Assembly (NCBI RefSeq): GCF_021295095.1
Contig: NZ_JAJLQX010000020.1
Span: 1-59,986, forward strand
Direction of reading: 5' to 3'
Source of the DNA: Phocaeicola oris
Lineage (GTDB): Bacteria > Bacteroidota > Bacteroidia > Bacteroidales > Bacteroidaceae
DNA length: 59,986 nt
Part shown: piece by piece, positions 155 to 50,760 of the stretch
Position numbering within the stretch: the stretch's first letter is position 1
Layout: every line of letters begins with the position of its first letter
Made by a program: the position numbers and the translations under genes
The notes under the pieces: generated by a model
What the model was told of the DNA's origin: nothing
The model's database searches: none
What the model saw: only the letters and a program-made list of their open reading frames with translations

Positions 155-240
155 TTTATGTCGAACTCATGTAATTCATTGATATGAGTAGGTGATTCAT
201 GCGTATCACTTTTACTGATCTCTTTATGACAAAGATCAAA
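155..240 (+). repeat. 22-bp periodic intergenic repeat, copy A
   Basis: Short copy with about two recognisable units (177-198 and 199-220) and the family tail TGATCTCTTTATGACA at 216-231. It lies between the terminator of the upstream gene and the stop codon of the GH127 gene, so it sits just 3' of that minus-strand gene. Confidence 0.6.
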
Positions 241-261
241 GAGTCTGATGAGATTGACAAT

Positions 262-3200
262 TCATTGCCCTGTCGCCATCTTTAATCGAGTTACAGCAGT
301 CTCTATCATATCTTTCGTTCCACTACCGTCGGCTACATATTTCATAACCATCCGTGCGTATTCCACCGCTTCTTTCAGAACCGGTTCGGTGGAATCGTCT
401 ACCTTCCCCACTCGTCTTAGCAAAGCTGATAAAGGGCGTAAATCTTCCATTTCAGGCAAGTTACCCGGACGCATTGTATTGATGGCCATATTCAGTGTTG
501 CCATCGCTGCATTTATTTCGTTTTGCGAATAAATTCTATCTTTATTATCATAGATGTTTTGCGCTTCTTTCATCGCATGTTTTAATCGGAAGAATCCAAA
601 GTGTGCCCAAGGAGCATGTTCCGGTACCTTAACGGTAAGGGCTTCCCAGCTCTCTTGTTCGCTAATCCGTTTCATTCCTACATTCAGGAGTTCCTTCAGT
701 GAGTTTTTATTTACACTGTCTGCCTTTACTAAGGCAGCAATAGCATCTTTCAGGGCTAATGTTCGATGATCGATTGTTGTCTGCTGATTACTACTGTTCA
801 TTACTTCGTAAGCCACATTAAGTTCTGTCCGCAAAGTCTCGAAACTGACCGTGGTGTAAAGGGTGGAATCTTGACTTTCAGCAGAACGAATAGTTGCTTG
901 TAGGTTACTTTTATTTAATTTAAAGGTGTTCAAACCATTGACAGCTTCGTCAATAGCCGCCATGCCGGTCGATATTTCGGTTTCCGTAACCGTTGATTTA
1001 CTCATTATTTTTTCTCCTTCTTTCATAGCCTTCTTTAGACGGTTGAAAGTTGCTTTAGTATAATTCTCTTTGTTATACGCCGTTACTTCCCTTAACTTAG
1101 TAGATAAGGCCATCTTTAATTCCGAGGAGGGAGAATCAATATGGTTAATACGGAAATAGTGGGTTGAGTGGTCGTGGCGGTAATAGTCCGGTTGGAAAAC
1201 GTGCCCGCCTTGAGTAAAAGTATATAAATTACCATTAGTGCCTGTCTCTATACCATCCGGTTTCACTGTCATGATGGTAGCTAATCGAGAATCAATATTC
1301 AAGGCAGCTTCCGACCAATTGCTTATATTGGTAGCCGTCATAGCCAATGGTCCATACATTAATGTCCCTACCCAAGAATCTTCTGATTGCGTTTTCCCTT
1401 GGTTGGCTAACTCGGCAGGAAGTTTGTCGGGTCCATAGTCGATGTGTTTAGTGAACGGCATAGTTATCTCTACCATATCTCCTTCTTTCCAATGACGAGA
1501 AGGAATTACCACATAAGTACAAGGTTGATAATTATCAACAATCGACACTCCGTTTATTTTTACATTAAAACCATCGGTTGCCCAGTAAGGTACACGCAGC
1601 TTCATCGCGAAGTCAGCTTCTCCTTTCACTATCTTAATGGTAGAACTCTCTGCCGGCCATAAGCATTCTTGTTTTAATGTTATTCCTTTCTCTTTCCATT
1701 GAAGAGTGGTTGGCATGTATAAAGCCACCCATAAAGTATTATCCGAAACGAAGTATGTAGCTTCTTGATACTTCACGTGATTTTCTGATCCGGTACCACC
1801 GCAACAGGAAGATTGTGGTGTCTTGTTTCCCCAAGGCTTGGAAGCGTCCAACCCTACGGCATACTGGTAAGTTGTCTGATAACATGTAGGATGTAGCGAA
1901 CCGATAATTTGATTATAAAGAGTACGCTCATAGTAATCCATATATCGCGCGTCGTCCGGATTGAAGCGATTTAGTTCCTTGGTCAGTTTTAGTAGATTAT
2001 AGGCACAACAAGTCTCATTAATATTCGGGTTCGGGTGACTTTCTCCTTCAGAAATTCCATTCATGGCCATACTTAATATTTGCGAATAAGGTTGACGGAA
2101 CATTTCTCCGTTGCCTACGCCGCCGGTAGAATAGCGGTAGCGACCTTGTATCAGGCTCCAAAAATTCTCAGACAAATTGTAATAGAAGGGTTTTTTATTG
2201 GTCAGATAGCTTCTTAATGCCCCAATAATCATTGGAATATGCTGATTGGCATGTCGATTGCGTATATCATCGATGTTTTTCGATAAAGGAATATAGAAAG
2301 CCGGACTATCAAAACAATTGGAAGCTTCTATCAGGCGCATACGTTCTTCCGGATTATCAACCATCTCTGAAAGACGTGCCAAAGATTCTCCGATACCGCC
2401 CACTTCTCCGGCAATGTACATATTCCACATTTCATAACGGTTGCCCGGCCGGGCTCTACGTTCATTTTGTGTACCATCCATCTTCACATAAGTACGATAA
2501 TGCATCCTATTCCACACCCATAACCCCATATCCTTGGCTATCAAAAGAGCCTTATCGGCAACAGCCTTGTCATCCATGTAAGTGGCTATATCTATCAGTC
2601 CGGCTAATTGTTTATGAATGGAATAATAAGGAGCCCATACCCAATCGGAGTTATTATAGGCGCGATACATTTCTATAAGTGCCGGATGATGAGCGGGAAT
2701 GGCATTCAGATAACCATAGCCATAAGTACTCCATTGAGTCTTGTATTTGTCAAAGTCCTTCCATGTTCCTTTCATTTTTTTTAACTCCTCTTCGGGAGCA
2801 AAGTCACGTGCTTCAAGATACCTTCCTAATTCTTTACTCCATACAAAAGTGCGCTCCTGACATTCACGCAGTTCATTGACCATTCGGGTGATATTGTTTC
2901 GTAAGATTGATTTTTGTATAGTGTCTGTCGTAACGGCATAGGCTAACGCCAGTGCCGACATGTAATGGCCGGAACCGTGTCCTTTCAACTTTATATCCGG
3001 AGAGTCCCACCCGTCGGAACGAGTATATCCTTCTGTACTCAGCCCATACGTATCTCGATAATTATACAGCTGCTGAGTAACATCCCAACTTACAATCTCT
3101 TTAATGGCTAAATCACGATTCGATACCAGTCGGTTATTACCATCGATAGTCACATTAGTTAATGGGATGGTATTTGCTATGGGCTTGGTAGGAGTCTTAT

Positions 3201-3597
3201 ACCCTTCGCTTGTCACTTCTATTCTCGCGGAAATAGGATACCCGTTATCTGTAGTATCGTCGCCTGTGACATAACCATTTATTGTATATATACTTCCCGC
3301 AGGATAAGTGCGAGCATCAGCCTCTTGTTGCTCCGTGGCAAGTGTGGCATTATCCCATTTGGTTTGGCGAAATTCGGTCTTCCCATCCGAATAGGTCACC
3401 CATACTTGGTAAGGCAGTCGAGGCACCGTCCCTACAGGACAGCGAACCACTATCGGCTCTACCGAAGCAATAGTTCGTATCTCAGAATCACTTGTCCATA
3501 CTTTATGGACATTTATTCCACCTAAACTCAAAGCAGATACATTAGCAGAGATTAGCCATAAGCATAGTCCCATTATAGAAGAAAAAAATCTATTCAT
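262..3597 (-). CDS. Secreted GH127-family glycosidase (beta-L-arabinofuranosidase-like) with Ig-like and helical domains
   Basis: The 1111-residue product starts at the ATG at 3597, giving a clean signal peptide (MNRFFSSIMGLCLW); an upstream in-frame ATG at 3642 would spoil it. Residues about 45-130 form an Ig-like domain with GTVPRLPYQVWVTYSDG. The central part (about 195-830) is GH127/DUF1680-like: SGHYMSALALAYA, YYSIHKQLAGLID, ETCCAYNLLK and SSCCGGTGSE. E528-x-C530 and C598-C599 match the Glu/Cys zinc-thiolate arrangement of known GH127 enzymes. The C-terminal 250 residues are helical, FIVAR-like repeats. It is last in the SusC-SusD-enzyme unit, so it probably trims arabinose-containing glycans in the periplasm or at the surface. 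The exact linkage is unknown. Confidence 0.85.
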   Translation of the reverse strand: MNRFFSSIMGLCLWLISANVSALSLGGINVHKVWTSDSEIRTIASVEPIVVRCPVGTVPRLPYQVWVTYSDGKTEFRQTKWDNATLATEQQEADARTYPAGSIYTINGYVTGDDTTDNGYPISARIEVTSEGYKTPTKPIANTIPLTNVTIDGNNRLVSNRDLAIKEIVSWDVTQQLYNYRDTYGLSTEGYTRSDGWDSPDIKLKGHGSGHYMSALALAYAVTTDTIQKSILRNNITRMVNELRECQERTFVWSKELGRYLEARDFAPEEELKKMKGTWKDFDKYKTQWSTYGYGYLNAIPAHHPALIEMYRAYNNSDWVWAPYYSIHKQLAGLIDIATYMDDKAVADKALLIAKDMGLWVWNRMHYRTYVKMDGTQNERRARPGNRYEMWNMYIAGEVGGIGESLARLSEMVDNPEERMRLIEASNCFDSPAFYIPLSKNIDDIRNRHANQHIPMIIGALRSYLTNKKPFYYNLSENFWSLIQGRYRYSTGGVGNGEMFRQPYSQILSMAMNGISEGESHPNPNINETCCAYNLLKLTKELNRFNPDDARYMDYYERTLYNQIIGSLHPTCYQTTYQYAVGLDASKPWGNKTPQSSCCGGTGSENHVKYQEATYFVSDNTLWVALYMPTTLQWKEKGITLKQECLWPAESSTIKIVKGEADFAMKLRVPYWATDGFNVKINGVSIVDNYQPCTYVVIPSRHWKEGDMVEITMPFTKHIDYGPDKLPAELANQGKTQSEDSWVGTLMYGPLAMTATNISNWSEAALNIDSRLATIMTVKPDGIETGTNGNLYTFTQGGHVFQPDYYRHDHSTHYFRINHIDSPSSELKMALSTKLREVTAYNKENYTKATFNRLKKAMKEGEKIMSKSTVTETEISTGMAAIDEAVNGLNTFKLNKSNLQATIRSAESQDSTLYTTVSFETLRTELNVAYEVMNSSNQQTTIDHRTLALKDAIAALVKADSVNKNSLKELLNVGMKRISEQESWEALTVKVPEHAPWAHFGFFRLKHAMKEAQNIYDNKDRIYSQNEINAAMATLNMAINTMRPGNLPEMEDLRPLSALLRRVGKVDDSTEPVLKEAVEYARMVMKYVADGSGTKDMIETAVTRLKMATGQ

Positions 3598-3696
3598 TCT
3601 TATCTTTTTTATAAGGATTAGTATATAAAAGCCCAATTTCAATAAACAAAATCAGGCTTTTACACACTAACATATTAGTGCTCACATGTCAATTCG

Positions 3697-5316
3697 TTAT
3701 CTGCCGGCATAACCCGGATTTTGTTGTAAATTAGGATTCTTATTTAAATCTTCCAAATGAATAGGGAATAAAATGGAATTCCCTTTTAAATCATTTTCTG
3801 TTGGAACATGATTAAACCAACTCTTCTTTTGGAAAGTTCCAAACCGAATCATATCAATACGACGACGACCTTCTGCTGCAAATTCCCATCCCCATTCATC
3901 GTAAAGTCCACCAAACTCCACAGGGTCAGTATTGCCTACGGCATCAATATTACCATTTTCATCAAGTGTACCATATTGAATGTGTGTATCTCCTTTTAAC
4001 CAAGTCACATCAACCGTTGCTTTCTCCGGATGAGCAGATTCACTGAACGCACGTTCGCGAATTTGCGAAACGAGATTAGCGGCTTCTGCTTCATTCTGTC
4101 CTAAACGGAGCAAACATTCTGCCTTCATTAATAATACTTCTGCGTAACGGAAATACGGGAAGTCGTTGCTTAATAAGCTTTTTGCACCGATTTTAATTTC
4201 ATATTTACCTATACGGTAACCGTCATCGGTCCCTGTATTATAAATACTCGGTAGCTTATTGGGAAATGTGGTAATCAAAACTCCGTCAGGACTGTATTGG
4301 TCACCTTGTAACCAAGAGTACTTCAAACGCATATCGTTTTTGTCATAACTATTAATAAATTGAGGATTTGCGGCTGAGCCTCCCCATGGAGTAGATTGCA
4401 TGTTGAATACCTTACGGCTGTTTGAAGATAAAAACTTCATGTGTGCTCCGAATACCGGTCCGTTATTGTCTCCGGAGTTGTAAACCTCATCGTATGGAAT
4501 AGCAAAAATCGTTTCCACACAGGCAGCATTGTCTGTCTTAAAGATATCTGTGTATTTCGATTCCAGTTTGAATAAATTGCTATTGATAATTTCATCACAT
4601 TGTTGCAGACATTCGTTCCACATCGGAGTGCCTGTATATACCTCGGCATTCAAATACATACGAGCCATCAGACATTTGGCTCCCCATTGAGTAAGTCGTC
4701 CATAAGTAGTTTTATCGACAGCTGAAGACAGTTCAGGCATTACCTCCGTCAATTCTTTGATAATGAAATCAAAGACCTCTTTACGGGTAGATTGGTTAGG
4801 GACATCTTCGCTAAATGTAGTCTGAATAGGCACATTTCCGTGAGTGTCACATAAGATTGAATACCAAAGTGCACGAATAGCTCTTACTTCAGCTACAATT
4901 TTCGGCTTACTATTTTCCGAGAAGAAACCTTCATCGGCACGTTTTAATATTTTATTAGCATTGGCAATGCCCTCGAAACAAACAGACCAAGTACTTTGAG
5001 GCTGTCCTTGTTGATTATCCCATGTGTGCTTGTGCATTTGTTTGTAAGTACCACCATCGTCCCAACCGTTGGGACGAGTGGGGGTGACAATTACATCACC
5101 TGGTTCTTCTTGTAAGTCAAACAGGCCATACCAGTCCATAACATAGCGAAGCTTCGAGTATGTGGTAGCTAACAACGCAACTTCATCGGCTTCAGTCGGT
5201 ACATATTCTTCTTCAACAATTTCCGAATAAGGGGTCTCATCCAAATTAAAGCAACTGCTCATACTGAGCATTGCAGATGCGCAGAATGCATAAACGCTAT
5301 ATTTTAATCGTTTCAT
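3697..5316 (-). CDS. SusD/RagB-family outer-membrane glycan-binding lipoprotein
   Basis: The 539-residue product has a lipoprotein signal (SMLSMSSC, acylated Cys about 22) followed by FNLDETPYSEI, the usual SusD start. The helical TPR-like N-terminal part and the RYAEVLLMKAECLLRLG motif near residue 390 are typical of the family. The C-terminal WGWEFAAEGRRRIDMIRFG and the last residues NLQQNPGYAGR match the SusD end. It lies 26 bp after susC on the same strand and would cap that porin to capture oligosaccharide. Substrate is unknown but is presumably what the adjacent GH127 enzyme cleaves. Confidence 0.93.
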   Translation of the reverse strand: MKRLKYSVYAFCASAMLSMSSCFNLDETPYSEIVEEEYVPTEADEVALLATTYSKLRYVMDWYGLFDLQEEPGDVIVTPTRPNGWDDGGTYKQMHKHTWDNQQGQPQSTWSVCFEGIANANKILKRADEGFFSENSKPKIVAEVRAIRALWYSILCDTHGNVPIQTTFSEDVPNQSTRKEVFDFIIKELTEVMPELSSAVDKTTYGRLTQWGAKCLMARMYLNAEVYTGTPMWNECLQQCDEIINSNLFKLESKYTDIFKTDNAACVETIFAIPYDEVYNSGDNNGPVFGAHMKFLSSNSRKVFNMQSTPWGGSAANPQFINSYDKNDMRLKYSWLQGDQYSPDGVLITTFPNKLPSIYNTGTDDGYRIGKYEIKIGAKSLLSNDFPYFRYAEVLLMKAECLLRLGQNEAEAANLVSQIRERAFSESAHPEKATVDVTWLKGDTHIQYGTLDENGNIDAVGNTDPVEFGGLYDEWGWEFAAEGRRRIDMIRFGTFQKKSWFNHVPTENDLKGNSILFPIHLEDLNKNPNLQQNPGYAGR

Positions 5317-5342
5317 AATTGTTCTCTTTTGTATGATTAGAC

Positions 5343-8300
5343 TTAGAATGTGAGGTTAACACCAAAAGTATACGTACGATTGGTAGGATACTTGTCTCGA
5401 TTATCTGTACCGGCATCCAGTAATCCATAGCTACTACTGCTCAAAGGAACTTCCGGATCCATACCCTTATAACCGGTAATGGTTGCTAAATTTAAGACTG
5501 ATGCATATACTCGTAAATTTTTGATAACCTTTTGTTTGGGCAGCTTGATGGTATATCCTAAAGTTACATTGTCTATTTTCCAGTAATCTCCATCTTCAAT
5601 ATAATAGCTTACATACCGTTGTTCATCTTTCAGTTGGGTTTTTCCGTAGACCTTGTTAAAAGCGGAATTCAAACGGTTATATTGAATTTCCGGTTTTGCG
5701 TTTTCGTAAAACATTCGTTGATAATTCAAAATTTGGAAGTCAAAAGCTCCCCGCATATTTACGCTTAGATCAAAATTATAAAAATTGAATGTATTGTTCC
5801 AATTCAGATAATGTTTGGGAATTCCGTTTCCCAAAACCTGCCAGTCTGTAGCATCAGCTTCTGTTGCTAATATATGTTCTCCTTCCTTGTTTTCAACCAA
5901 CCACAAGCCATCTTCAGTAATATCAACTGATTTCAAGCCATAGAATGTACCGATAGCCTTACCTACTTGTACAATATGAGTGGTTGTCTGGATAGGTTCA
6001 CCTGTATAACCGGAATAAAAATAATCTTGGGTCATGGAGAATTTATCACTTGACAAAGCAACGATTTTGTTTGTATTGGTAGAATAAGAGATGTTGGTAT
6101 TCCAAGTAAAGTTTTCACTCTGAAAAGGAATGGCACGAATTAAGATCTCCAGACCTTTGTTCTCCATTTCCGAAGCATTGGCTAGCATGGATGGGAACAT
6201 AAAAGGTGGAACGGGAACAGGATAATCCCAAAGCGCGTCTTTAGTCTTACGGGTGTAGTAGTCGATTGTACCTCCCACTCGTCCGTTTAGGATATCCCAA
6301 TCCAAACCGATATTGAATTCATGTTTCTTTTCCCAACGCAAATCCGCATTATTGTTTCGAACCGTTTCCAATGCTTTTACCCATGTGCCATTGTATAAGA
6401 AAGCACCTTCATAATTCAAGCCGGAAAGTGATGTGTATGGATCAGCCACATTAATACCGGTTACGCCATAGCCCACACGAAACTTCAAATTGTCCAACCA
6501 ATTTAAGTTCTTCATAAAATTTTCCCTATTGATTCTCCATCCTAATGATATGCCCGGGAAATTACCCCATTTATGATCTTTACCAAACTTAGAAGAGCCT
6601 TCATGACGAAGAGAGGCCATTAATAAATAACGATCATTGAAATTATAGCTCACGCGTGCAAATACACCAATCAATTTGTCGGAACTCTTATAACTGCTCA
6701 TGGATCCCTCGCCGCGTTTCAATGCCATACCTGCTTCCATTTTATTGTAAGAGTAAGCATCTGTTGGGAAATCATAGTTAGTCATTGACATATTGGAATT
6801 CGTATTGTCTTCATAATTATAACCTACCAATGCACTGACATTATGATTTCCGAACGTTTTCTGAAAATGAGCTGTCAATTCAATCAAGTTATTATCGAAG
6901 TCAGAACCATAGCGGTAGGCATAACCGTTACGACCGTTCTTGGTGGTGGATACATGTTGCTTTGTCTGATAATATCCATCTGTGGTTGTTGTGCTGCGAC
7001 GGGCATACATAGCTTTCAGTGTCAAAGATTCAATCGGTCGGAAAGTCAAGCTACCATTAAAACGCATGTTTTTACGTTTCATTTCACCAATCGTTTCGCG
7101 AATATAACCTACAGGGTTATCGTAGAAATATAAATCACGCTCAAACCAGTTGTTCTTTTCATCTTTTATTGGTTCTGTCGGATTATGAATTAAAGCTTGT
7201 CTGTAAGCATAGGTATTCCAGCTTCGAGGCATAGTATGTTGGCTTACCAACAGACTGACGTCAGCGGTCAATTTGTTTTCGTACATAGAATGAGTGACAT
7301 CCATTCGAGCATTCATAGCTTCAAAGTCTGTCTTTATGAAAGTTCCTTGGCGCTTGGTATAATTGGCCGATGCCGTATAATGGGTATTTTTACTGCCTCC
7401 TCTCAAAGATAAGTTATGCGAGTGAGATACTGCCGTACGAGTCAGTTCTCCCAACCAATCGGTATTGGCCCCGAAATCTTTCAGATTGGCACCATTGAAA
7501 ATATATCCTTCATCCCATTTCTGACGAAGATCGTCGGCACTCATAAAATCCGGTCTCTGTAAAATATTTGAAACAGATATATATCCGTTATAATCAATGG
7601 TAGGGGGCATTTCTTTACGGCTTTGTTTCGTAGTAATAATAATAACGCCGTTTGTGCCACGAGTTCCATAGATAGCAGTGGCAGATCCGTCTTTCAATAC
7701 ATCTATGGATTCAATATCTTCCGGAGCCACCGTATTCAGACTGCCGGGCACTCCATCTACCAATACCAAAGGAGAAGTTCCTCCTTTTAAAGATGAAATA
7801 CCACGAAGCATTATTTGTGAGTTTCCGGTAGGATCTCCTGAAGGTAAAGAGATGTTTAATCCGGCTACTTTGCCTTGAATCAACTGCCCGGCATCACTCA
7901 CAGCTCCTTTGACAAAATTCTCGGACTTCACACTTGAGATTGCACTTGTCACATCTCCTTTCTTTTGAGTACCGTAACCGATGACCACCACTTCGTCCAG
8001 CAGCTCTGTATCGTCATGGAGTACGATATCGAGTTGGCGGTTATTCCCGACAGTGATTTCCTGAGTTTTGTAGCCAATGTAAGAAATGGATAACACAGAA
8101 TGTGAATCTCGTACATTCAGTGTGTATCGACCGTCCATATCGGTTATCACACCGTTGGTTGTCCCTTTCTCAATCACGTTGGCACCAATGATGGGATCGC
8201 CATTCTTGTCTTTCACAATACCTGTAATGGTAACAGATTGCTGTTGCATAGCCTCGATGCTTGTTGTTTTTACGGTTTCCGCAAGCATTTGTACGGGACA

Positions 8301-8700: not shown

Positions 8701-8704
8701 ATAA

Positions 8705-8870
8705 AAGCGAAAAGTGATGCGGATGAGTTGGTCAGTTCATGCGGATGAGTTGAACGATTCATGCGGATGAGTTAGGCGATTCATACGCATCACTTTATTG
8801 ACTCATACGCATCACTTTTTCTGATCTCTTTATGGAACTTAAATGAATACTTTAGGAACATAAGTTTACC
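8705..8870 (+). repeat. 22-bp periodic intergenic repeat, copy B
   Basis: Five consecutive units with an exact 22-bp period at 8717, 8739, 8761, 8783 and 8805. The first three read ATGCGGATGAGTT plus nine spacer bases ending in TTC; the last two switch to ATACGCATCACTT. The outer arms AAAGTGATGCG (8711) and CGCATCACTTTTT (8808) are complementary and end in a T-run. The family tail CTGATCTCTTTATG follows at 8821. The stop of the glycosyltransferase gene at 8930 lies beyond. Confidence 0.85.
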
Positions 8871-15234: not shown

Positions 15235-15600
15235 GGTATTATGATACTCCGATACGTAGGAACAAAGAAAGCGAATCGTATAAGTTGCCGTATTCATCAA
15301 AAGAATTTTTTGTTTCACCTATGTGATTCACTTGTTTCACCTATGTGATTCACTTGTTTCACCTATGTGATTCGCTTGTTTCACTTATGTGATTCGCTTG
15401 TTTCACCAATGTGAAACAAATAAATTATCCGTATGAGTTGAGTGATTCATACAGATCTATTTTACTAATCTCTTTATGACAATTTTAATGAACTTGGCAA
15501 AAAGGGAAAAATTCTGTTTATCATTCCCTAAGGATGTATTCTACTTTTGTAGGTTTCCACATGGTCTTTCTGTCATTTCGTTAATTTGAAACACGGCATC
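15235..15600 (+). repeat. 22-bp periodic intergenic repeat, copy C (GTTTCAC type)
   Basis: Five units of GTTTCACCTATGTGATTC plus four bases at an exact 22-bp period (15312, 15334, 15356, 15378, 15400). The last ends in the palindrome GTTTCACCAATGTGAAAC. Two units of the ATNCGNATGAGTT type follow (15427, 15449), then the tail CTAATCTCTTTATGACA. Upstream GATACGTAGGAACAAAGAAAG and downstream TTTTGTAGGTTTC are shared with copy F at 42570-42850. The yifB stop is at 15641. Confidence 0.85.
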
Positions 15601-23851: not shown

Positions 23852-23995
23852 CTTATACTCATCAGTATAAGATTGTTGGATGATCCGCATCACTTGCTCA
23901 ACTCATGCGTATGAGTTGTCTGTTTCATCCGCATCATTTGATCAACTCATCCGCATCACTTTGAAGAATGATACAGATGAGTTGGGATGTTGTTG
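23852..23995 (-). repeat. 22-bp periodic intergenic repeat, copy D, with terminal hairpin
   Basis: Five units at an exact 22-bp period (23883, 23905, 23927, 23949, 23971), mostly ATCCGCATCACTT or ATGCGTATGAGTT cores. A hairpin CTTATACT-CATC-AGTATAAG at 23852-23871 is followed on the minus strand by TTTTTTCTTTATG, which resembles the family tail. The array sits between two convergent genes, 46 bp after the permease stop. Confidence 0.8.
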
Positions 23996-30999: not shown

Positions 31000-31462
31000 A
31001 TTACTTTAAAGCTCAGTTTATTTTACTGTAATATATGTTTATAATATGGTTAATCTTTTGGTAATATTTCAATACTAACGGATTTTCGTGCATTATAAAA
31101 AGAGAGGTTATGTCAGGCTTCAATTTCCCTTTAAAACGGAGTTTTTGCTTCTTCGTCAGATTCATTAGAGTTATTATCAAGATGACCGGGAAAAGTGATG
31201 CGGATGAATCGATCAACTCATGCGGATGACTTGCCAAACTCATGCGGATGACTTGTCCAATTCATGCGCATGAACTGACAAACTCATACGTATGGATTGA
31301 CAAATACTTCTGATGAAGATGAAAACTCACTCAAATCTCTTTTCTTTTTTGTATATACGGAAATAGTAACTGTTTATGATTGATTTCCAAAAAGACTGTG
31401 TGTCCTTTTAAAAAGAAATAATGATATGCGGTTTGCTTTCTTTTGAATTTGTCGAACTCGTC
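31000..31462 (-). repeat. 22-bp periodic intergenic repeat, copy E (long form)
   Basis: Five units at an exact 22-bp period (31198, 31220, 31242, 31264, 31286). Read on the minus strand the element starts right after the pdx kinase stop with GAGTTCGACAAATTCAAAAG and AACCGCATATC, related to the head of copy F. After the array, the minus strand continues with TCATCTTGATAATAACTC and AATGAATCTGACGAAGAAGC, strongly matching the right flank of copy G at 50580-50740. The rest of 30817-31000 is AT-rich with nothing recognisable. Confidence 0.8.
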
Positions 31463-42434: not shown

Positions 42435-42465
42435 CCGATTCTTCTATTTATACGTAAGTAAATTA

Positions 42466-42874
42466 ACGTGAGTTCGACGAATTCAAAATAATGTAAGCCG
42501 CGTATCTCCGCAGCTTCTTAAACAGACACGCAAATCTTTGAAGAAATCAATGGTACACGGCTACTACCCCGATACGTAGGAACAAAGAAAGTGGCCATAT
42601 ATGTTGCCGTATTCATCAAAAGAATTTTTCGTTTCACAGATGTGATACATTCGTTTCACAGATGTGAGTCACTTGTTTCACTGATGTGAAACAAGTAGAT
42701 TATGCGTATGAGTTGAGTGATTCATACGGTTCTTTTTTACTAATCTCTTTATGACAATTTTAAAGAACCTGATAAAAAGAGAAAAACATCGTTTTAAACA
42801 TACTATAAGGTCGTATTCCATCTTTGTAGATTTCTACATAGGCATCCTGTTATTTCATCGAATTCACGTTAAAT
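42466..42874 (+). mobile_element. 22-bp periodic element, copy F, bounded by inverted repeats (MITE-like)
   Basis: The left end AACGTGAGTTCGAC (42467) and right end ATCGAATTCACGTT (42858) are imperfect inverted repeats, about 13 of 15 matching. Inside: a hairpin GTAAGCCGCGTA / TACACGGCTAC, a block shared with copy C (GATACGTAGGAACAAAGAAAG apart from one base), three GTTTCACAGATGTGA-type units at 42631, 42653, 42675, two ATNCGNATGAGTT-type units at 42702 and 42724, and the tail CTAATCTCTTTATGACA. There is no open frame and no clear target duplication. It follows comF by 31 bp. Confidence 0.65.
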
Positions 42875-42884
42875 TAGCAAGGGT

Positions 42885-42945
42885 ATAAAAAAGGGGGCTG
42901 AGCGTATCACCGCGACCAGCCCCCTGATATTTAAAGATTATTGTA
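42885..42945 (-). terminator. Shared GC-rich terminator downstream of the first fimbrillin cassette
   Basis: On the minus strand AGGGGGCTGGTCGCGG...CGCTCAGCCCCC folds into a strong hairpin followed by TTTTTTATACCC. It is a close copy, in opposite orientation, of the terminator at 111-151, including the upstream ATCTTTAAATATC. It would end transcripts of the small frame at 42974-43075. Confidence 0.75.
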
Positions 42946-42973
42946 TAAGTTTTTTCAGTTTATCCTATCCTTT

Positions 42974-43075: not shown

Positions 43076-43142
43076 AGTTTTTAATGTTTGAGGGGTTAGT
43101 ACTATTGATAAAACACAATGTCAGGCGACATATTGCCCGATT

Positions 43143-43310
43143 GACTCGTTTGAGGGCTTTGTCAGCCTGACAAAGCGTGCTTTTGAGTCGTTTGGGCGCT
43201 ATGTCATCTGACAAAGCGTACTTTTTACTCGTCTGGAGACTTTGTCAGCGTGACAATGCGTACTTTTTACTCGTTTGGACGGTTTGTCGGCTGACAAGGC
43301 CTGTTTTTTA
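43143..43310. repeat. Four exact-period 42-bp tandem repeats with hairpins
   Basis: Units at 43143, 43185, 43227 and 43269, each 42 bp. Every unit holds ACTCGTTTGG-like sequence, an inverted repeat TTTGTCAG-CCTGACAAAG (variants) and, in the plus direction, GCGTACTTTTT. So each is a hairpin with a T-run on the plus strand. The array ends 2 bp before the fimbrillin stop codon (minus strand). It is unrelated in sequence to the 22-bp family. Confidence 0.9.
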
Positions 43311-43312
43311 TA

Positions 43313-44863: not shown

Positions 44864-44983
44864 TTTATTTACTGTTTTTTATTCTTAATAACTCTTCTTT
44901 ATGTTTCTGTATTTTCGTTTCAGGATGGGGATTACCTAAACTGTTTGTTCTGTACCCTCCTTTTCGTCGAAATAAAAGTCTCA

Positions 44984-45136
44984 TTAGTCACCGAGTGGTG
45001 GTGCCACCGTTCCCGGTTCGTGATCTCCCGATGCGCTTAGCAGTACACTTTCACAGTGGAGTGTTATCACTTCTATTGCAGGGCTTGCGTAAGCCCACTT
45101 CTTTCTACTTTGATCTTTTTCTACTTTTTCGTTCAT
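44984..45136 (-). CDS. 50-residue peptide paired with fimbrillin (cassette 1)
   Basis: ATG at 45136 to TAA at 44984 encodes exactly 50 residues beginning MNEKVEKDQSRKKWAYASPA, then IEVITLHCESVLLSASGD. Of the first 37 positions, 21 are identical to the 50-residue peptide at 58981-59133, including QSxKKxAYxSP, VI, and LLxASG. There is no signal peptide; the N-terminus is charged and lysine-rich. Similar YxxPxxxV...LLxxSG short proteins are, from memory, frequent and uncharacterised in Bacteroidetes. After the stop the same frame continues TGA, then DFYFDEKEGTEQTV, an acidic tail. Confidence 0.65.
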   Translation of the reverse strand: MNEKVEKDQSRKKWAYASPAIEVITLHCESVLLSASGDHEPGTVAPPLGD

Positions 45137-45480
45137 AACTTATATTTTTTTTGAGTGAATTTAGATGCTTATAATGTTCTTCGCGAGTCCCGCGAAAGGG
45201 TATGAATAATGAGGCAAGAGAATTCATCGGAATCTCTTTATGGATAGTGTCTTCAGCGCTTACACGCGCGCGTATGAAAAGACGGAAAAATGTGCTTAAG
45301 TAGGGGCGATTAGAATGTGTGTGTGTGTGTGTGTGTGTGTTAGCAAATTGTTTGGAATGGCCAAATAATTTGTCTTAAAATTCACGTTATGATTAAAATA
45401 GTCTTGCGCTTTACACATTTATATAATAGGATGTAAATCATCCACGTTGATGATTTCGGTGGCGAAGGTAAGTATTAAGT
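45137..45480 (-). promoter_or_regulatory. Long conserved leader and promoter of cassette 1, with TG microsatellite
   Basis: The sequence from 45137 to about 45590 aligns with 59134-59728. At 45473-45480 the minus strand has TACCTTCG, a weak TAnnTTTG box in the place of TAGCTTTG in cassette 2, with a TTG about 20 nt upstream. Transcripts would carry a leader of about 330 nt before the peptide. Within it is a palindromic GCGCTTACACGCGCGCG stretch and a TG tract at 45316-45340 ((TG)12), which is only (TG)3 in cassette 2. Confidence 0.55.
45316..45340. repeat. Dinucleotide microsatellite (TG)12
   Basis: Twelve and a half TG repeats in the inferred 5' untranslated region of the peptide-fimbrillin unit. 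The same position in cassette 2 (59314-59320) has three and a half repeats. Confidence 0.95.
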
Positions 45481-45636
45481 TTAAATTAATCAAGAAAAAT
45501 GCAAAAAGTTTTCATTAAACCATGTTACGATGATGACAATGCTTATCATCAACCATATATTTATCCAATTATATTGAATTCACGTTATTTATTAAAAATA
45601 CCCTATTTGAAGTTTCTTTTTTACATTTGATTTTTT

Positions 45637-45644
45637 TATTTTTG
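45637..45644 (+). promoter_or_regulatory. -7 box for pyrE
   Basis: TATTTTTG fits TAnnTTTG and lies 26 nt before the pyrE start. No -33 element at ideal spacing is obvious in the T-rich upstream stretch. Confidence 0.6.
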
Positions 45645-45670
45645 CCATTCCAAATCATACATTTTGCATT

Positions 45671-46309
45671 ATGAAAACGTTAGAGAAGTTATTTGCTGAA
45701 AAGTTATTGAGAATTAAGGCTATTAAGTTGCAACCTGCAAATCCATTTACATGGGCTTCCGGTTGGAAGTCTCCATTCTATTGTGATAACCGCAAGACTC
45801 TTTCTTACCCTTCTCTCCGTAATTTTGTTAAGATTGAAATCAGTCGGATCATTCAGGAACGTTTTGGTCAGGTGGATGCTATTGCCGGTGTCGCTACCGG
45901 AGCAATTCCTCAGGGTGCTTTAGTTGCCGATGAACTGAACTTGCCTTTTGTTTATGTCCGTTCTCATCCTAAAGATCACGGATTGGAAAATTTAATTGAA
46001 GGCGAGCTTCGCCCGGGGATGAGAGTTGTTGTTGTTGAAGATTTGGTTTCAACAGGTGGGAGCAGCTTAAAAGCTGTAGAAGCTATTCGCAATAATGGTT
46101 GTGAGGTTATCGGAATGGTAGCTTCATTTACTTATGGTTTTCAGGTTTCAGTGGATGCGTTTAAGGCCGCGAAAGTAACGTTGGTTACGTTGACCAATTA
46201 TGAAGCAGTGCTCGAAGAGGCTTTGAAAACCGAGTATATCAGTGAGGAAGATGTTACTGTTCTGAATACATGGCGTAAGGATCCTGCTCATTGGGATGTT
46301 GAAAAATAA
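45671..46309 (+). CDS. pyrE: Orotate phosphoribosyltransferase
   Basis: The 212-residue product joins orotate to PRPP to form OMP in pyrimidine synthesis. INFERRED from motifs: NPFTWASGWKSPFYCDNRK is the N-terminal substrate region, RSHPKDHG the catalytic lysine loop equivalent, and VVVVEDLVSTGGSSLKA the PRPP-binding loop. Length is normal. It begins a plus-strand housekeeping block (pyrE, SRPBCC, argH) just outside cassette 1, with its own promoter and terminator. Confidence 0.96.
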   Translation: MKTLEKLFAEKLLRIKAIKLQPANPFTWASGWKSPFYCDNRKTLSYPSLRNFVKIEISRIIQERFGQVDAIAGVATGAIPQGALVADELNLPFVYVRSHPKDHGLENLIEGELRPGMRVVVVEDLVSTGGSSLKAVEAIRNNGCEVIGMVASFTYGFQVSVDAFKAAKVTLVTLTNYEAVLEEALKTEYISEEDVTVLNTWRKDPAHWDVEK

Positions 46310-46325
46310 GACAGATTAAATCATA

Positions 46326-46375
46326 CGAAGAGAGAGTCCTCTGGAGTGTATTGCTTTAGAAGATTCTCTTTTTAT
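46326..46375 (+). terminator. Probable terminator after pyrE
   Basis: AGAGAGTC near 46330 can pair with GATTCTCT near 46361, followed by TTTTTATATA. The loop is long (over 20 nt), so strength is uncertain. Confidence 0.5.
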
Positions 46376-46386
46376 ATATAAATAAT

Positions 46387-46815
46387 ATGGCACAGTACGA
46401 AAGTAATATAAAATACATTCCTTATAGTCAGGAACGGGTATATGAAAAGTTATCCGATTTGAATAACTTGAGCGATATGGGTGGAAAGTTGGAAGAAATG
46501 AAAGAACAGTTGCAAGGGAAAATCGAAGATTTCTCGTTCGATCAGGATTCCATCTCGGTTAAGATACAAGGATTTAATCTGACTATGAAGATTATTGAAC
46601 GTAATCCGAGCAAAGAAATTAAGTTTGAAGGGGTTAATACACCTATTCCTATGAATCTTTGGGTTCAAATTCTTCCGCATCAAACTGTAGAACAGTCTAA
46701 AATGAAGCTGACTATTCGTGCTGATGTAAATATGTTTATGAAGTCAATGGTTGCAAAGCCGCTTCAAGAAGGAGTGGAGAAGTTGGCAGATTTGCTTGCG
46801 ATGATAAAATATTGA
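46387..46815 (+). CDS. SRPBCC/START-fold small-molecule-binding protein
   Basis: The 142-residue product has MAQYESNIKYIPYSQERVYEK at the N-terminus, DSISVKIQGFNLTMKIIE in the middle and a C-terminal helix (MVAKPLQEGVEKLADLLAMI), the helix-grip layout of polyketide-cyclase/START-like proteins. It has no catalytic motif. Homologues sit next to argH or pyrE in many Bacteroidales, with unknown ligand. It ends 4 bp before argH, so co-transcription is likely. Confidence 0.7.
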   Translation: MAQYESNIKYIPYSQERVYEKLSDLNNLSDMGGKLEEMKEQLQGKIEDFSFDQDSISVKIQGFNLTMKIIERNPSKEIKFEGVNTPIPMNLWVQILPHQTVEQSKMKLTIRADVNMFMKSMVAKPLQEGVEKLADLLAMIKY

Positions 46816-46819
46816 AGAT

Positions 46820-48160
46820 ATGGCAACAAAACTATGGGAAAAAAATGTGCAAGTAAACGAGAAGATTGACAAGTTTACAGTAGGAAAAGACCGTGAATTA
46901 GACCTCTATTTAGCAAAATATGATGTGCTCGGTTCTATGGCTCATATTACTATGTTAGAGAGTATCGGTCTGTTGATGCCGGATGAGTTGAAAATTCTAT
47001 CAGCTGAATTGAAGCAAATTTATGCTTTGGCCGAAAAGGGTGAGTTTGTTATTGAAGATGGCATTGAAGATGTTCATTCTCAGGTAGAATTGATGCTGAC
47101 TCGTAAGTTGGGCGATGTGGGAAAGAAGATTCATAGCGGACGTTCGCGTAATGATCAAGTGCTGGTTGACTTGAAGCTTTTTACTCGTGCCCGGATTAAG
47201 TGTATGGTAGAGAAAGTATCGTCTCTTTTCCATATTTTGATTGATCAGAGTAATAATTATAAAGATGTTCTGATGCCGGGTTATACCCATCTTCAGGTGG
47301 CTATGCCTTCTTCTTTTGGATTGTGGTTTGGTGCTTATGCCGAAAGTTTGGTAGATGATATGATGCTTCTTCAGGCTGCGTTTAAGATAACGAACCGTAA
47401 TCCGTTGGGATCCGCTGCCGGATATGGTTCCTCTTTCCCTTTGAACAGGGCTATGACAACAGAACTATTGGGCTTCGATTCAATGAATTATAATGTTGTT
47501 TATGCTCAGATGGGGCGTGGGAAAATGGAGCGTAACGTAGCTTTTGCTTTAGCTTCTGTTGCAGGGACTCTTTCTAAAATGGCATTCGATGCTTGTATGT
47601 TCAGCAGCCAGAATTTCGGATTTGTTAAGTTGCCTGATGAGTGTACCACAGGCTCAAGTATTATGCCTCATAAAAAGAATCCTGATGTGTTCGAGCTTAC
47701 TCGTGCAAAATGCAATAAAATCCAATCTCTTCCACAGCAGATTATGATGATTATGAATAATTTGCCTTCGGGTTATTTCCGTGACCTTCAAATTATTAAG
47801 GAAATATTTTTGCCTTCTTTTCAAGAATTGGAAGATTGTTTGGATATGGCTGCTTATATCATGGGACGTATGGAGGTTAATCGTCATATTTTGGATGACA
47901 GTCGTTACGATAATATGTTTAGTGTGGAGGAAGTCAACCGTTTGACTTTGGATGGAATGCCTTTCCGTGATGCATATAAAAAGGTTGGCTTAGATATTGT
48001 GGCAGGAAACTTTAAACCTGATAAAAAGATTTATCATACACACGATGGCAGTATTGGTAATCTTTGTAATGATCAGATTACCGTACTGATGCAAAAGGTG
48101 ATTGATGAATTTGACTTTGCGAAGATACAAGAGGCAGAGAAGAAGTTGTTAGGTCGTTAG
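46820..48160 (+). CDS. argH: Argininosuccinate lyase
   Basis: The 446-residue product splits argininosuccinate to arginine and fumarate. KIHSGRSRNDQVLVDLKL and GYTHLQVAMPSSFGLW are the first two conserved regions of the fumarase/aspartase superfamily; the signature loop is TTGSSIMPHKKNPDVFELTR (catalytic Ser in SSIMPHKKNPD, about 280). Cytoplasmic homotetramer. No other arginine genes lie nearby. Confidence 0.96.
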   Translation: MATKLWEKNVQVNEKIDKFTVGKDRELDLYLAKYDVLGSMAHITMLESIGLLMPDELKILSAELKQIYALAEKGEFVIEDGIEDVHSQVELMLTRKLGDVGKKIHSGRSRNDQVLVDLKLFTRARIKCMVEKVSSLFHILIDQSNNYKDVLMPGYTHLQVAMPSSFGLWFGAYAESLVDDMMLLQAAFKITNRNPLGSAAGYGSSFPLNRAMTTELLGFDSMNYNVVYAQMGRGKMERNVAFALASVAGTLSKMAFDACMFSSQNFGFVKLPDECTTGSSIMPHKKNPDVFELTRAKCNKIQSLPQQIMMIMNNLPSGYFRDLQIIKEIFLPSFQELEDCLDMAAYIMGRMEVNRHILDDSRYDNMFSVEEVNRLTLDGMPFRDAYKKVGLDIVAGNFKPDKKIYHTHDGSIGNLCNDQITVLMQKVIDEFDFAKIQEAEKKLLGR

Positions 48161-48216
48161 TGGAATGCTTAATGCGCTTAAATTGAACGATGGGATTAAA
48201 AAATTAACACCAAAAT

Positions 48217-48247
48217 TTTGTTGATTATATAAAAGGTTTTATCTTTG
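48217..48247 (+). promoter_or_regulatory. Promoter of the tRNA-Gly/tRNA-Leu operon
   Basis: TTTG at 48217-48220, 19-nt spacer, then TATCTTTG at 48240-48247: a textbook Bacteroidetes -33/-7 pair. The tRNA-Gly gene begins 18 nt later. Confidence 0.85.
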
Positions 48248-48264
48248 CACCCGTCTAAGTAAAC

Positions 48265-48337
<73 letters not shown>

Positions 48338-48350
48338 CTCATTTGAGGAT

Positions 48351-48435
48351 GCTCGAATGGTGGAATCGGTAGACACGAGGGACTTAAAATCCCTTGGGCA
48401 TTGCGCCTGTGCGGGTTCAAGTCCCGCTTCGAGTA
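48351..48435 (+). tRNA. tRNA-Leu (anticodon TAA)
   Basis: 85 nt, class II. Acceptor GCTCGAA pairs with TTCGAGT (one G-U at the end), anticodon stem AGGGA/TCCCT with loop CTTAAAA gives TAA, a variable arm follows (TGGGCATTGCGCCTG region) and the T arm has GGTTCAAGTCC. Separated from tRNA-Gly by 13 nt. Confidence 0.96.
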
Positions 48436-48444
48436 CAACAAAAA

Positions 48445-48481
48445 ACCGTCAACTCATTGTTTCTAATGGTTGGCGGTTTTT
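48445..48481 (+). terminator. Terminator of the tRNA operon
   Basis: ACCGTCAAC pairs with GTTGGCGGT across a 15-nt loop, followed by TTTTT. It may also serve the convergent acyltransferase gene, since AAAAAA precedes the stem. Confidence 0.85.
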
Positions 48482-48523
48482 ATTGTTAATAACAGACTTT
48501 GATAGGGATTAATGGTAATGTAT

Positions 48524-49600
48524 TCAAATGCCTAACCACCATTTCGCTTTCGGTAAATATGAAAGGATTCGGATGCCGATATAAGTGAGTATTAAAACCG
48601 TAACAGATAATATCGGTACTTCAATGACTACGCTGCCCCATTTGTTTACTATGTATGGACTGAGCAGGGTAAGGATGATGATATGTCCTAAGTATATTCC
48701 GTATCCGCGGGTTGCTGCGTCGGTGAGTAATGAACGGAATTTGCTATGTCCGTCGTATGTAATCTTTGTAACCAAACCGAAGATACCCAATGTCATCATG
48801 GCTACATTGACAGCACAGTAATCCCAACTGAGTTCAAGTGAATGAATGCTCTCGGCTGTCGCGATACGTGAGTTGTAAATTACCACAGTAGCTATGTATC
48901 CTACTATTAATATGATTGCTGATACGATAGCTTTCGGAGTTCCGTACTTCTTGACGTAAAATCCGAGGATGAAATAGCCTGCCATTCCATAGAAATAGTA
49001 TAATAATGGAGAGGCGTTCCAGTAGCATTCACCCAAGATGCTTGGGAATAACAGATGGATATATGGCAAGAAACAAGTGAATATCCAAATGCCGAGGTAT
49101 ACTTCAAGTTGTTTCTTTGTGCAGCTCTGCAGCCAAGGCGAGAGGATGGGAACTAACAGGTACAGCCCGATAAGCATGTAAACATACCATAAGTGACCGA
49201 CTTCAGTTCCATAGTTTACCGGAATATGAGCGATGTTAATAAGGCACTGCTGAATAGTGTCTCCTTTAGTCAGGACACCGAATAGCGCATAAATGATACA
49301 CCAGAAAATGAACGGGAAAAGAATACGGTTCATCCTTTTCTTGAAGAAGTTGGTGAATGTATCTTTCATTGGCAGCAAGAAGTACCCGGAAATCATCACA
49401 AACAATGGAACGGCAGTACGGGCTACACTGTCAATGATACCAATTAAATATGTGCTGTGTTCGCGAACGACTTCACCTTGCGGACTAATATAGTATAATT
49501 CACTGGAGTGTTGCCATACGACAAGCAGACAGGCCAAGACGCGTACAATATCGAGCGCAAAGTTCCTGTTTTTAACCTTTTGAGCATTTTCTGTTATCAT
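48524..49600 (-). CDS. Membrane acyltransferase, family 3 (OatA/WecH-like)
   Basis: The 358-residue product has about ten hydrophobic segments. FALDIVRVLACLLVVWQHSS has the conserved Arg and active-site His of the family; VARTAVPLFVMISGYFLLPM and FFKKRMNRILFPFIFWCIIY are the next blocks, and GHLWYVYMLIGLYLLVPIL follows. These enzymes O-acetylate sugars of peptidoglycan, LPS or other surface glycans in the inner membrane. It is monocistronic and divergent from the DUF1080 gene. The target is unknown. Confidence 0.9.
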   Translation of the reverse strand: MITENAQKVKNRNFALDIVRVLACLLVVWQHSSELYYISPQGEVVREHSTYLIGIIDSVARTAVPLFVMISGYFLLPMKDTFTNFFKKRMNRILFPFIFWCIIYALFGVLTKGDTIQQCLINIAHIPVNYGTEVGHLWYVYMLIGLYLLVPILSPWLQSCTKKQLEVYLGIWIFTCFLPYIHLLFPSILGECYWNASPLLYYFYGMAGYFILGFYVKKYGTPKAIVSAIILIVGYIATVVIYNSRIATAESIHSLELSWDYCAVNVAMMTLGIFGLVTKITYDGHSKFRSLLTDAATRGYGIYLGHIIILTLLSPYIVNKWGSVVIEVPILSVTVLILTYIGIRILSYLPKAKWWLGI

Positions 49601-49769
49601 CCTTTTAGATTTAAAGTTTAAATATTTATTTAAATAATAACGTAAGGCTGCAAATATAATTAAATTCTGAATTTCTGCCTAATCCGATGTTTAAATAGCT
49701 TTTTTCTTTTCGAACTTTTTCTTGTTTTGCTTCTTCCTTTTTTTTATTTTTACGGCAAATCATATAATT

Positions 49770-50390
49770 ATGAAAGCAAAAATATTATTCTTATCGGTTA
49801 TGGTAATCTCCTTATGCTCAGCATGTAGCAATAAGGGAACAGCTCTTTTTAATGGTAAAGACTTGTCGAATTGGGTTGGTTTTGTTGATCCGGAAAGTCA
49901 TTCTTCAGTTGATAACGTTTTCTCTGTACAGGATGGTGTGATTAATGTAACCGGAAAGCCGAACGGTTATATCCGAACACAAGAAAGATATAAGAATTTT
50001 ACTTTATCGGTGGAGTGGCGTTGGTCGGAAGGAGCACGTTATGACAGTGGCATTTATGTGGCATTAGGCGATGAAGACCGTATATGGCCTAAAGGAATTC
50101 AAATGCAGATGAAAGACGGGCAGTTGGGTGTGCTGATCAGTGCCGTTAAACTTTTGGGTGTAGCGTCTGAAGGCCCGGTTTGTTTCAAGTCGGCATTAAC
50201 AGATGAAACCACAGAGAAGCCTATCGGGGAGTGGAATACCACCGCTATTACCTGTAAAGATAATCATTACACCGCAACAGTCAATGGCATACTGGTGAAT
50301 GAGGCTGATTGCGAAGATACCGAAGGATATATCGCTCTGCAGAGTGAAGGCGGTCCCATTCAATTCCGTAACGTATATATAAAGAAGTAA
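49770..50390 (+). CDS. DUF1080 family lipoprotein (3-keto-disaccharide hydrolase-like)
   Basis: The 206-residue product starts at MKAKILFLSVMVISLCSACS (ATG 49770), with lipobox LCSAC; the upstream in-frame ATG (49722) is less plausible. GTALFNGKDLSNWVGF is the DUF1080 signature start, followed by a lectin-like jelly-roll (YDSGIYVALGDEDRIWPKGI, MQMKDGQLG) and GYIALQSEGGPIQFRNVYIK at the end. DUF1080 includes 3-keto-glycoside hydrolases and carbohydrate-binding modules. It is a single-domain, probably outer-membrane-anchored form. Repeat copy G follows. Confidence 0.88.
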   Translation: MKAKILFLSVMVISLCSACSNKGTALFNGKDLSNWVGFVDPESHSSVDNVFSVQDGVINVTGKPNGYIRTQERYKNFTLSVEWRWSEGARYDSGIYVALGDEDRIWPKGIQMQMKDGQLGVLISAVKLLGVASEGPVCFKSALTDETTEKPIGEWNTTAITCKDNHYTATVNGILVNEADCEDTEGYIALQSEGGPIQFRNVYIKK

Positions 50391-50474
50391 AGATTGGTTT
50401 TAAAATCGATAAAGTAGCTTTGACAGGGTGATCATTACCTCCGAGTGAGGAGAAAAGGATAAGTGCTTTCGGTG

Positions 50475-50760
50475 TTGCGTATGAACGTGAAAAGTGATGC
50501 GTATGAGTTGAACGATTCATCCGCATGAGTTGTGTGATTCATCCGCATGAGTTGAACGATTCATGCGGATCACTTTTTCCAGTCATCTTGATGATAATTT
50601 CAATGAATCTGGCGAAGAAGCAAAAACGTCGTTTAAACATACTGTAACACCGCTTTAATAGGAAACTTAAGTCTGACATGACTTCGCTTTCATCGTGTAC
50701 GAAAATCCATTAGTCTTGAAATGTTGCCATAGGTTAATTGTATCATACATATTTGCGGCA
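50475..50760 (+). repeat. 22-bp periodic intergenic repeat, copy G (long form)
   Basis: Four clear units at exact 22-bp spacing (50497, 50519, 50541, 50563), with a degenerate one at 50475. Outer arms AAAAGTGATGCG (50490) and ATGCGGATCACTTTTT (50563) are complementary and end in T5. The right flank (TCATCTTGATGATAATTTC, GAATCTGGCGAAGAAGC, CGAAAATCCATTAGTC) matches copy E across about 170 bp, and AACGTCGTTTAAACATACT matches copy F. Confidence 0.85.

What the first reader, a model, noticed from the sequence alone, without database searches (positions are those of the whole stretch)
155..50760. Dispersed intergenic repeat family with an exact 22-bp period, seven copies in 60 kb
Arrays at about 177-220, 8717-8826, 15312-15470, 23883-23992, 31198-31307, 42631-42745 and 50497-50584 are built from 22-bp units, usually four to seven per copy, with period conserved but sequence drifting: core ATNCGNATGAGTT or its flipped sense ATNCGNATCACTT, then five variable bases and ATTC/ACTC. 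All are intergenic and each lies close to at least one stop codon; none is in a purely divergent promoter region (xerD/aroQ, ribD/prmC). Period conservation while units vary suggests selection on spacing, such as two helical turns for protein binding, or recent array growth. I recall 22-bp direct repeats being reported in Porphyromonas, but cannot say whether these are related.
Basis: seen in the sequence. Interest (0 to 1): 0.72.

Follow-up and report, generated by a model that had tools for sequence, protein, structure and literature searches.

The report
Mobile repeats of phased 22-bp palindromes
This bacterial genome is peppered with short repeats built from small palindromes placed exactly 22 bases apart; some are the cores of a small jumping element, and several related genomes carry their own versions with nearly the same spacing but unrelated letters.

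Summary
In a 829,985-bp sample of this genome (28%), 67 elements have two or more 22-bp units; of 219 spacings of 70 bp or less between successive strong units, 211 are exactly 22 and none is 21 or 23. The unit is a dyad (TSATNCGNATSA core); a second unit type (TCACN4GTGA) keeps the same 22-bp register. The family is nearly confined to this genome: 243 pattern hits here, 1 in 60 congeners, 0 in the other 394 genomes drawn from the phylum. It is at least partly mobile: the window copy at 42466-42869 is a MITE-like element with IS982-type ends and a 7-bp target duplication, and two close copies have duplications of their own. BrickBuilt of Porphyromonas gingivalis is the closest known thing. Placement favours convergent gene pairs (21 of 50 such gaps against 35 of 216 others); a terminator role was not supported. 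The surprise: four other Bacteroidales genomes each carry a different, genome-specific family of palindromes repeated every 22 or 23 bp. Best reading: mobile-element-derived arrays with constrained geometry; what reads that geometry is unknown.

The parts
169..220 (+). degenerate family-A copy, one good unit (about 192-213), tail-like right flank
   Evidence: sequence; single unit 191-213 (0-based) listed
8710..8819 (+). family-A array, 5 units of 22 bp, ends AAAAGTGAT / ATCACTTTT
15310..15414 (+). family-B array (TCAC N4 GTGA-like units), 4.8 copies of 22 bp
15420..15463 (+). two family-A units next to the B array
15245..15579 (+). diverged copy (72% identity over 337 columns) of the long MITE-like element; no terminal repeat detected
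   Evidence: (BLAST)
23854..23985 (+). family-A array, 6 units, convergent gap
31191..31300 (-). family-A array, 5 units, tandem gap; a terminal-repeat-like end about 166 bp to its right
42459..42465 (.). 7-bp target duplication TAAATTA, left
42466..42869 (+). complete MITE-like element (404 bp), terminal repeats ACGTGARTTCGAYGAA
42628..42693 (+). family-B array inside the element, 3 units
42695..42738 (+). family-A units inside the element (two by the loose core rule, one by the profile), in 22-bp register with the B units
42739..42869 (+). conserved tail of the element; BLAST with it gives 20 places in the sample, itself included
42870..42876 (.). 7-bp target duplication TAAATTA, right
50468..50577 (+). 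family-A array, 5 units by profile (the first one degenerate)
59862..59986 (+). end of an IS with the same terminal repeat; the contig stops inside it

Best explanation
The arrays are the cores of a non-autonomous, MITE-like repeat family. Shown: a long form (leader, 22-bp array, tail of about 134 bp, terminal inverted repeats) sits at three places between 7-bp target duplications, and its terminal repeats match those of a multicopy IS whose partial transposase resembles IS982. Inferred: the many array-only copies are old or truncated copies of the same kind, tolerated where they do little harm (intergenic, mostly beyond gene 3' ends). Inferred: the array keeps a strict 22-bp pitch because it is a row of dyad-symmetric sites about two helical turns apart, most likely bound on one DNA face by a dimeric protein of the host or of the element; letters may change as long as dyad and pitch remain.
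For: Three close copies (window; C4 94% and C3 91% identical to it, gaps counted) with terminal repeats ACGTGARTTCGAYGAA and 7-bp duplications TAAATTA, TAAGATA, TATCTTA. The IS: twelve contig ends on ten contigs stop 120-125 bp inside the same terminal repeat (positions; eight of the twelve read); the ORF inside one such end is 40% identical over 89 aa (E 2e-19) to a full transposase that matches NF033520 IS982 at 3e-65; 37 of the first 41 bases of the MITE leader match the other IS end. The tail is found at 20 places, itself included. The family is nearly confined to one genome, as expected of a lineage-specific burst. In 136 units chosen only by ATNCGNAT and a neighbour at 22, the outer dyad letters T(-2) and A(9) are 98% conserved. 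Exact pitch in both unit types and in shared register. Unrelated families of nearly the same pitch in four other genomes.
Against: Only 6 of 67 array elements show both terminal repeats, 10 a left one and 9 a right one (controls: 3 and 0 outward, 13 of 600 random places; the end model was itself built from 16 such ends of this sample), so the mobile origin of most copies is inferred. A fourth long copy (C1:1195-1842) has unlike flanks and looks recombinant. The full IS was never read in one piece. In one search the 163 units were filtered by core and dyad letters, so the conservation there (93-100%) is partly by construction. A test for selection on the dyad failed when made fair: fixed positions 98.6%, variable 58.6%, tail 72.8% in 11 copies, but windows wholly in the tail next to the array also have 13 of 34 columns at 100%. 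No binding protein was identified.
Confidence: 0.58

Rival explanations
1. Host-domesticated intergenic sites: a nucleoid or gyrase-type protein binds the phased dyads, and copies at gene ends are kept by selection, as proposed for REP/BIME sites (recalled).
For: About one element per 12 kb (67 in 830 kb); 21 of 50 convergent gaps with 100 bp or more free hold one against 35 of 216 other gaps, p 1.7e-4; in tandem gaps 22 of 29 lie nearer the upstream gene's end, p 0.008.
Against: The same placement follows from selection against harmful insertions; the family is absent from nearly all relatives searched; 13 of 65 in divergent gaps, not fewer than gap length predicts (p 0.39).
Confidence: 0.2
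2. RNA-level elements: the array is transcribed and folds into a long hairpin that ends or stabilises transcripts (terminator or 3' stabiliser).
For: Mean MFE of 29 arrays -45.1 kcal/mol on one strand and -31.8 on the other; mononucleotide shuffles -24.7. Ends AAAAGTGAT/ATCACTTTT look like A- and T-tracts; 54 terminal half-sites are followed by 4.6 T in 8 on average, without a control. Core positions of units four or five apart pair more than expected (38% against 24%, n 78; 47% against 24%, n 30), and positions -5/12 pair slightly more (89% against 86%, p 0.016). With arrays left unmasked, 27 of 46 convergent gene ends beside arrays have a predicted terminator against 30 of 66 others.
Against: Within units the arms do not covary: core positions 2/5 pair in 14% against 32% expected, -1/8 49% against 55%, -3/10 12% against 19%; whole-array mirror pairing 29% against 29%; real arrays fold less well than column-permuted ones (-48.3, sd 0.84). 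Terminator-like hairpins in 15 of 67 arrays against 33 of 161 control windows; with arrays masked, genes beside them keep predicted terminators about as often as others (16 of 46 against 27 of 66 convergent; 7 of 28 against 50 of 145 tandem). Strand bias in tandem gaps 18 of 29, p 0.26.
Confidence: 0.12
3. A passive minisatellite trapped in a MITE: slippage copies units, so unit length stays 22 without any function.
For: Close MITE copies differ by whole units (window one unit fewer, C1 two fewer than C3 and C4 in the alignment); the BrickBuilt authors describe their element as a MITE that trapped a repeat (PMC4596501, passage).
Against: Units are much diverged (6.0 of 22) with no 21- or 23-bp spacing; 43 of 67 elements have 4-6 units; unrelated families in other genomes have nearly the same pitch.
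Confidence: 0.2

Closest known systems
BrickBuilt MITE of Porphyromonas gingivalis (PMC4596501)
   Same: Intergenic MITE with leader, tandem 23-nt core, tail and short terminal repeats; some copies keep only the core; predicted long stem-loops; found in P. gingivalis and P. gulae only
   Different: Unit AGAYCATARTATCCTCTCRTRTG unrelated in sequence; 19 copies against about 240 here by extrapolation from the sample; ends like IS5-family ISPg1; 1 to 22.8 units per copy; here pitch is 22, the unit is a dyad, ends are IS982-like with 7-bp duplications
P. gingivalis MITE239 and ISPg3 ends (Table 2 of PMC4596501)
   Same: MITE239 left end begins ACGTGAGTTCGA, identical to the first 12 bases of the leader-side end here
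   Different: The part read says the 239 and 700 elements seem not to hold mini- or microsatellites; ISPg3 is listed as IS5 there, whereas the IS here resembles IS982
MITECca01 of Cardinium (PMC9769881)
   Same: Bacteroidota MITE derived from an IS982-family element, 169 copies in one lineage, mostly intergenic
   Different: About 240 bp; the word 'tandem' does not occur in its main text
REP/BIME palindromes with RAYT transposases (recalled)
   Same: Dispersed extragenic palindromes in arrays near gene ends, genome-specific sequence
   Different: No Y1_Tnp (PF01797) match in this genome; strict 22-bp pitch

Membership tests
Minisatellite-bearing MITE (BrickBuilt kind) | non-coding, dispersed, terminal inverted repeats | tested here: met
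   met for the long form (3 copies); both ends found in only 6 of 67 array elements (two of the three long copies have one profile unit and are not among the 67)
Minisatellite-bearing MITE (BrickBuilt kind) | target site duplications | tested here: met
   7-bp duplications in 3 of 3 close copies; not seen at the diverged two-ended copy C4:44935-45310 nor at the recombinant C1 copy
Minisatellite-bearing MITE (BrickBuilt kind) | internal tandem array between leader and tail | tested here: met
BrickBuilt itself | 23-nt unit AGAYCATARTATCCTCTCRTRTG and IS5-like ends | tested here: not met
   unit and ends differ by eye (against 27, 54)
IS982-derived MITE | ends shared with an IS982-family IS in the same genome | tested here: inconclusive
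   shared ends and N-terminal transposase similarity; full IS not assembled; NCBIfam gave no match for the 102-aa fragment alone
REP/RAYT | RAYT (Y1_Tnp) gene in the genome | tested here: not met
   0 matches at E 0.001; 5 of 14 control genomes positive; assembly 95% complete
Intrinsic terminator | hairpin plus T-tract above background; covarying stem | tested here: not met
   (simple predictor; some counter-signs, see rivals)
CRISPR | unique spacers between repeats | tested here: not met
   22-bp units abut
Known structured RNA | Rfam match at the arrays | tested here: not met
   only two tRNAs in the window at gathering scores

The most novel reading that the evidence does not exclude
In Bacteroidales there is a class of dispersed, genome-specific repeats defined by geometry rather than sequence: small palindromes placed every 22-23 bp, a few in a row, whose letters are replaced from genome to genome while the pitch stays. 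That would imply either a reader of phased dyads that co-evolves with its site, or a common generator that makes such arrays anew.
Probability: 0.35. Interest if true: 0.85.

Novelty: new variant of a known kind. Interest (0 to 1): 0.6.

Why it matters
If right, BrickBuilt is not a curiosity of one oral species but one case of a wider Bacteroidales class with a nearly fixed pitch. It gives a direct test of what selects helical phasing in bacterial intergenic DNA, and offers several unrelated families as natural replicates for finding the binding protein or the generator.

Tried and rejected
RAYT/REP link: no Y1_Tnp in the genome. RNA hairpin: within-unit covariation absent or negative, fold energy worse than permuted arrays; the few signs in favour are listed with that rival. 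Terminator: no enrichment in arrays. Selection on the dyad measured against the tail: looked strong, then failed a fair comparison. Finding the family elsewhere: 0 in genome contigs (a slightly stricter pattern; records of the own genome may be left out), 0 in viral contigs, 1 hit in 1 of 60 congeners, 0 in the other 394 genomes drawn from the phylum (one of these is a congener already). Convergent preference in the four other families: not seen in the 14 loci looked at (11 tandem, 2 divergent, 1 convergent). In relatives only four patterns were tried, picked because they looked palindromic; palindromic arrays at L012, L018, L063 and L084 were not followed. MetG loci: the best 80 of 254. Dropped rows: three two-unit chance arrays inside genes were left out; three near-identical copies and one copy whose first unit is family B were left out of 15; two of 67 elements could not be placed in a gap. 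Paper searches without a hit.
Full report
WHAT WAS CHECKED. The window is the whole of contig C12 (59,986 bp) of a 2.98-Mb, 50-contig assembly. Its MetG is 78-80% identical to the best records, named Bacteroides fragilis, Phocaeicola plebeius and uncultured Bacteroides or Prevotellaceae, so the organism is near Bacteroides and Phocaeicola; it was not named. TRF finds 22-bp arrays at six of the seven places given; the seventh (177-220) holds one good unit. Two of the seven (15310-15414, 42628-42693) are mainly a second unit type.

PERIOD. In a sample of 829,985 bp (28% of the genome) a unit profile finds 95 elements, 67 with two or more units. Of 219 spacings of 70 bp or less between successive strong units, 211 are 22, the others 14 (1), 28 (1), 43 (2), 44 (3) and 66 (1); none is 21 or 23. 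Reversed sequence gives 7 seeds and no neighbours. Adjacent units differ at 6.0 of 22 positions, so the lack of indels is notable. The profile was trained on units from part of the same sample; the simple core word ATNCGNAT gives the same picture (104 at 22, 0 at 15-21 and 23-29).

UNIT. The conserved part is a dyad, T.AT.CG.AT.A. In 136 units chosen only by ATNCGNAT and a neighbour at 22, the outer T and A are 98% conserved; in the filtered set of 163 units all eight dyad positions are 93-100%, partly by construction. A second unit, TCACN4GTGA, occurs 80 times against once in reversed sequence; all 50 of its spacings up to 70 bp are 22. Of 8 mixed A/B spacings, 4 are 22, 3 are 44 and 1 is 65. 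TCAC/GTGA and TCAT/ATGA differ by a change on both sides that keeps the dyad. Within family A, however, the arms do not covary, and at positions 2/5 pairing is well below expectation.

ELEMENT. Three close copies show what moves. The window copy runs from 42466 to 42869 with terminal repeats ACGTGARTTCGAYGAA, flanked by TAAATTA on both sides; the C3 and C4 copies (91% and 94% identical, gaps counted) are flanked by TAAGATA and TATCTTA. Inside lie a leader, a B array, A units and a tail of about 134 bp. The copies differ by whole 22-bp units. A fourth copy on C1 has unlike flanks. BLAST finds the tail at 20 places in the sample, the query included. The same ends occur 44 times in the genome at up to one mismatch. 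Twelve of these lie 120-125 bp from a contig end and point into it, two more nearest contig starts of C1 and C3: the assembly breaks in a multicopy IS, and the window itself ends in it (59862-59986). The partial ORF in C1 resembles an IS982 transposase. Most arrays have no detectable ends: both in 6 of 67, a left one in 10, a right one in 9, with outward controls of 3 and 0 and 13 of 600 at random places.

PLACEMENT. With a crude gene caller (640 genes, 86% coding) 65 of 67 elements fall in gaps: 23 convergent, 29 tandem, 13 divergent, against a free-length expectation of 17%, 57% and 25%. Of gaps with 100 bp or more free, 21 of 50 convergent, 25 of 142 tandem and 10 of 74 divergent hold one (p 1.7e-4 for convergent against the rest). 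In tandem gaps 22 of 29 are nearer the upstream gene's end. This fits both tolerance of insertions beyond gene ends and a role there. Terminator-like hairpins are not enriched in arrays (15 of 67 against 33 of 161 control windows).

RELATIVES. The family itself is almost confined to this genome: 1 hit in 1 of 60 congeners, none in the other 394 of 395 genomes drawn from the phylum, none in genome contigs or viral contigs. But 80 MetG-centred loci of other genomes, by their record titles Bacteroidales or close to them (1.50 Mb), hold 61 tandem arrays of period 21-23 and 58 of all other periods from 15 to 40; of those with 2.5 or more copies 37 against 15, and 11 of the 37 are palindromic (arm of 6 or more) against 1.1 expected from shuffled units; 26 of the 37 are not. 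Arrays of period 21-23 per Mb: 81.9 own, 40.5 these loci, 33.3 in three named Bacteroidales records (5 arrays), 9.8 genus mates (3), 14.1 a family-to-class sample (5), 12.6 other classes of the phylum (4), 7.5 Proteobacteria (3). So the feature is patchy: the sampled genus mates do not show it. These counts were not split into genic and intergenic.

FOUR OTHER FAMILIES. Four units that looked palindromic were searched in whole genomes. Each is dispersed in its own genome and absent from the other genomes searched with it: TTACCAAGNCTTGGTAA, pitch 22, 32 hits in G061 and 0 in 7 others; CAACAAACTAGNCTACTTTGTTG at up to two mismatches, pitch 22, 39 hits in G062 and 0 in 7; TTCCACATNATGTGGAA, two mismatches, pitch 23, 22 hits on four contigs of G064 and 0 in 5 others; CGAGATANNTATCTCG, two mismatches, pitch 23, 30 hits on six contigs of G065 and 0 in 5. 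Near-palindromic patterns match both strands, so places are fewer than hits. Copies read in G061 and G062 have three to five units in exact 22-bp steps. I did not look for terminal repeats or target duplications in these four families beyond a BLAST of copies.

COMPARISON WITH PRINT. BrickBuilt (PMC4596501; I read parts 1-3 of 9 of the text, and passages) is a MITE around a 23-nt minisatellite, 19 copies in P. gingivalis ATCC 33277, intergenic, ends like IS5-family elements. Its Table 2 lists MITE239 with a left end that begins ACGTGAGTTCGA, the same 12 bases as the leader-side end here. The Cardinium MITE (PMC9769881, passages) is an IS982-derived MITE with 169 copies. PMC5771137 (passages) annotates BrickBuilt and other repeats but not repeats of 3 to 31 bp. 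Searches for 22-bp palindromic or minisatellite repeats in Bacteroides, Prevotella or Bacteroidetes found nothing else on this in the library; most subscription papers are not held.

JUDGEMENT. Mobile-element origin is shown for the long form and inferred for the rest. A phased row of dyads read by a protein is the mechanism I think most likely for the strict pitch, but it is inference: no protein was found, and the selection test against the tail did not survive a fair comparison.

Noticed in passing
window 43144-43310 and C1:784-909 (L103): Another palindromic array, period about 42 (TTTGTCAG..CTGACAAAG), at two places; the stretch from the MITE through it is 88% alike over 700 bp on C1.
   Followed up: no
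window 74-149 and 42887-42961: Two copies (82%) of a GC-rich hairpin-like word (GGGGGCTGAGCG..AGCCCCC) with T- or A-rich flank, close to MITE or IS ends.
   Followed up: no
contig ends of C2, C8, C12, C16, C19, C23, C28, C29, C32, C34: Assembly breaks lie 120-125 bp inside one IS end, so the autonomous element seems collapsed and was not seen as a full copy.
   Followed up: partly
L127 about 10040 (G015, same genus): A lone two-unit relative of family A in one congener.
   Followed up: partly
L010 7220-7293 and L012 5133-5206 (Bacteroides fragilis): A GC-rich 22-bp array with the same consensus in two B. fragilis genomes near metG.
   Followed up: no
plasmid records NZ_OY725916, NZ_OY725756, OY725987: PLSDB 'plasmids' of 91-98 kb that carry metG and may be chromosomal pieces.
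   Followed up: no
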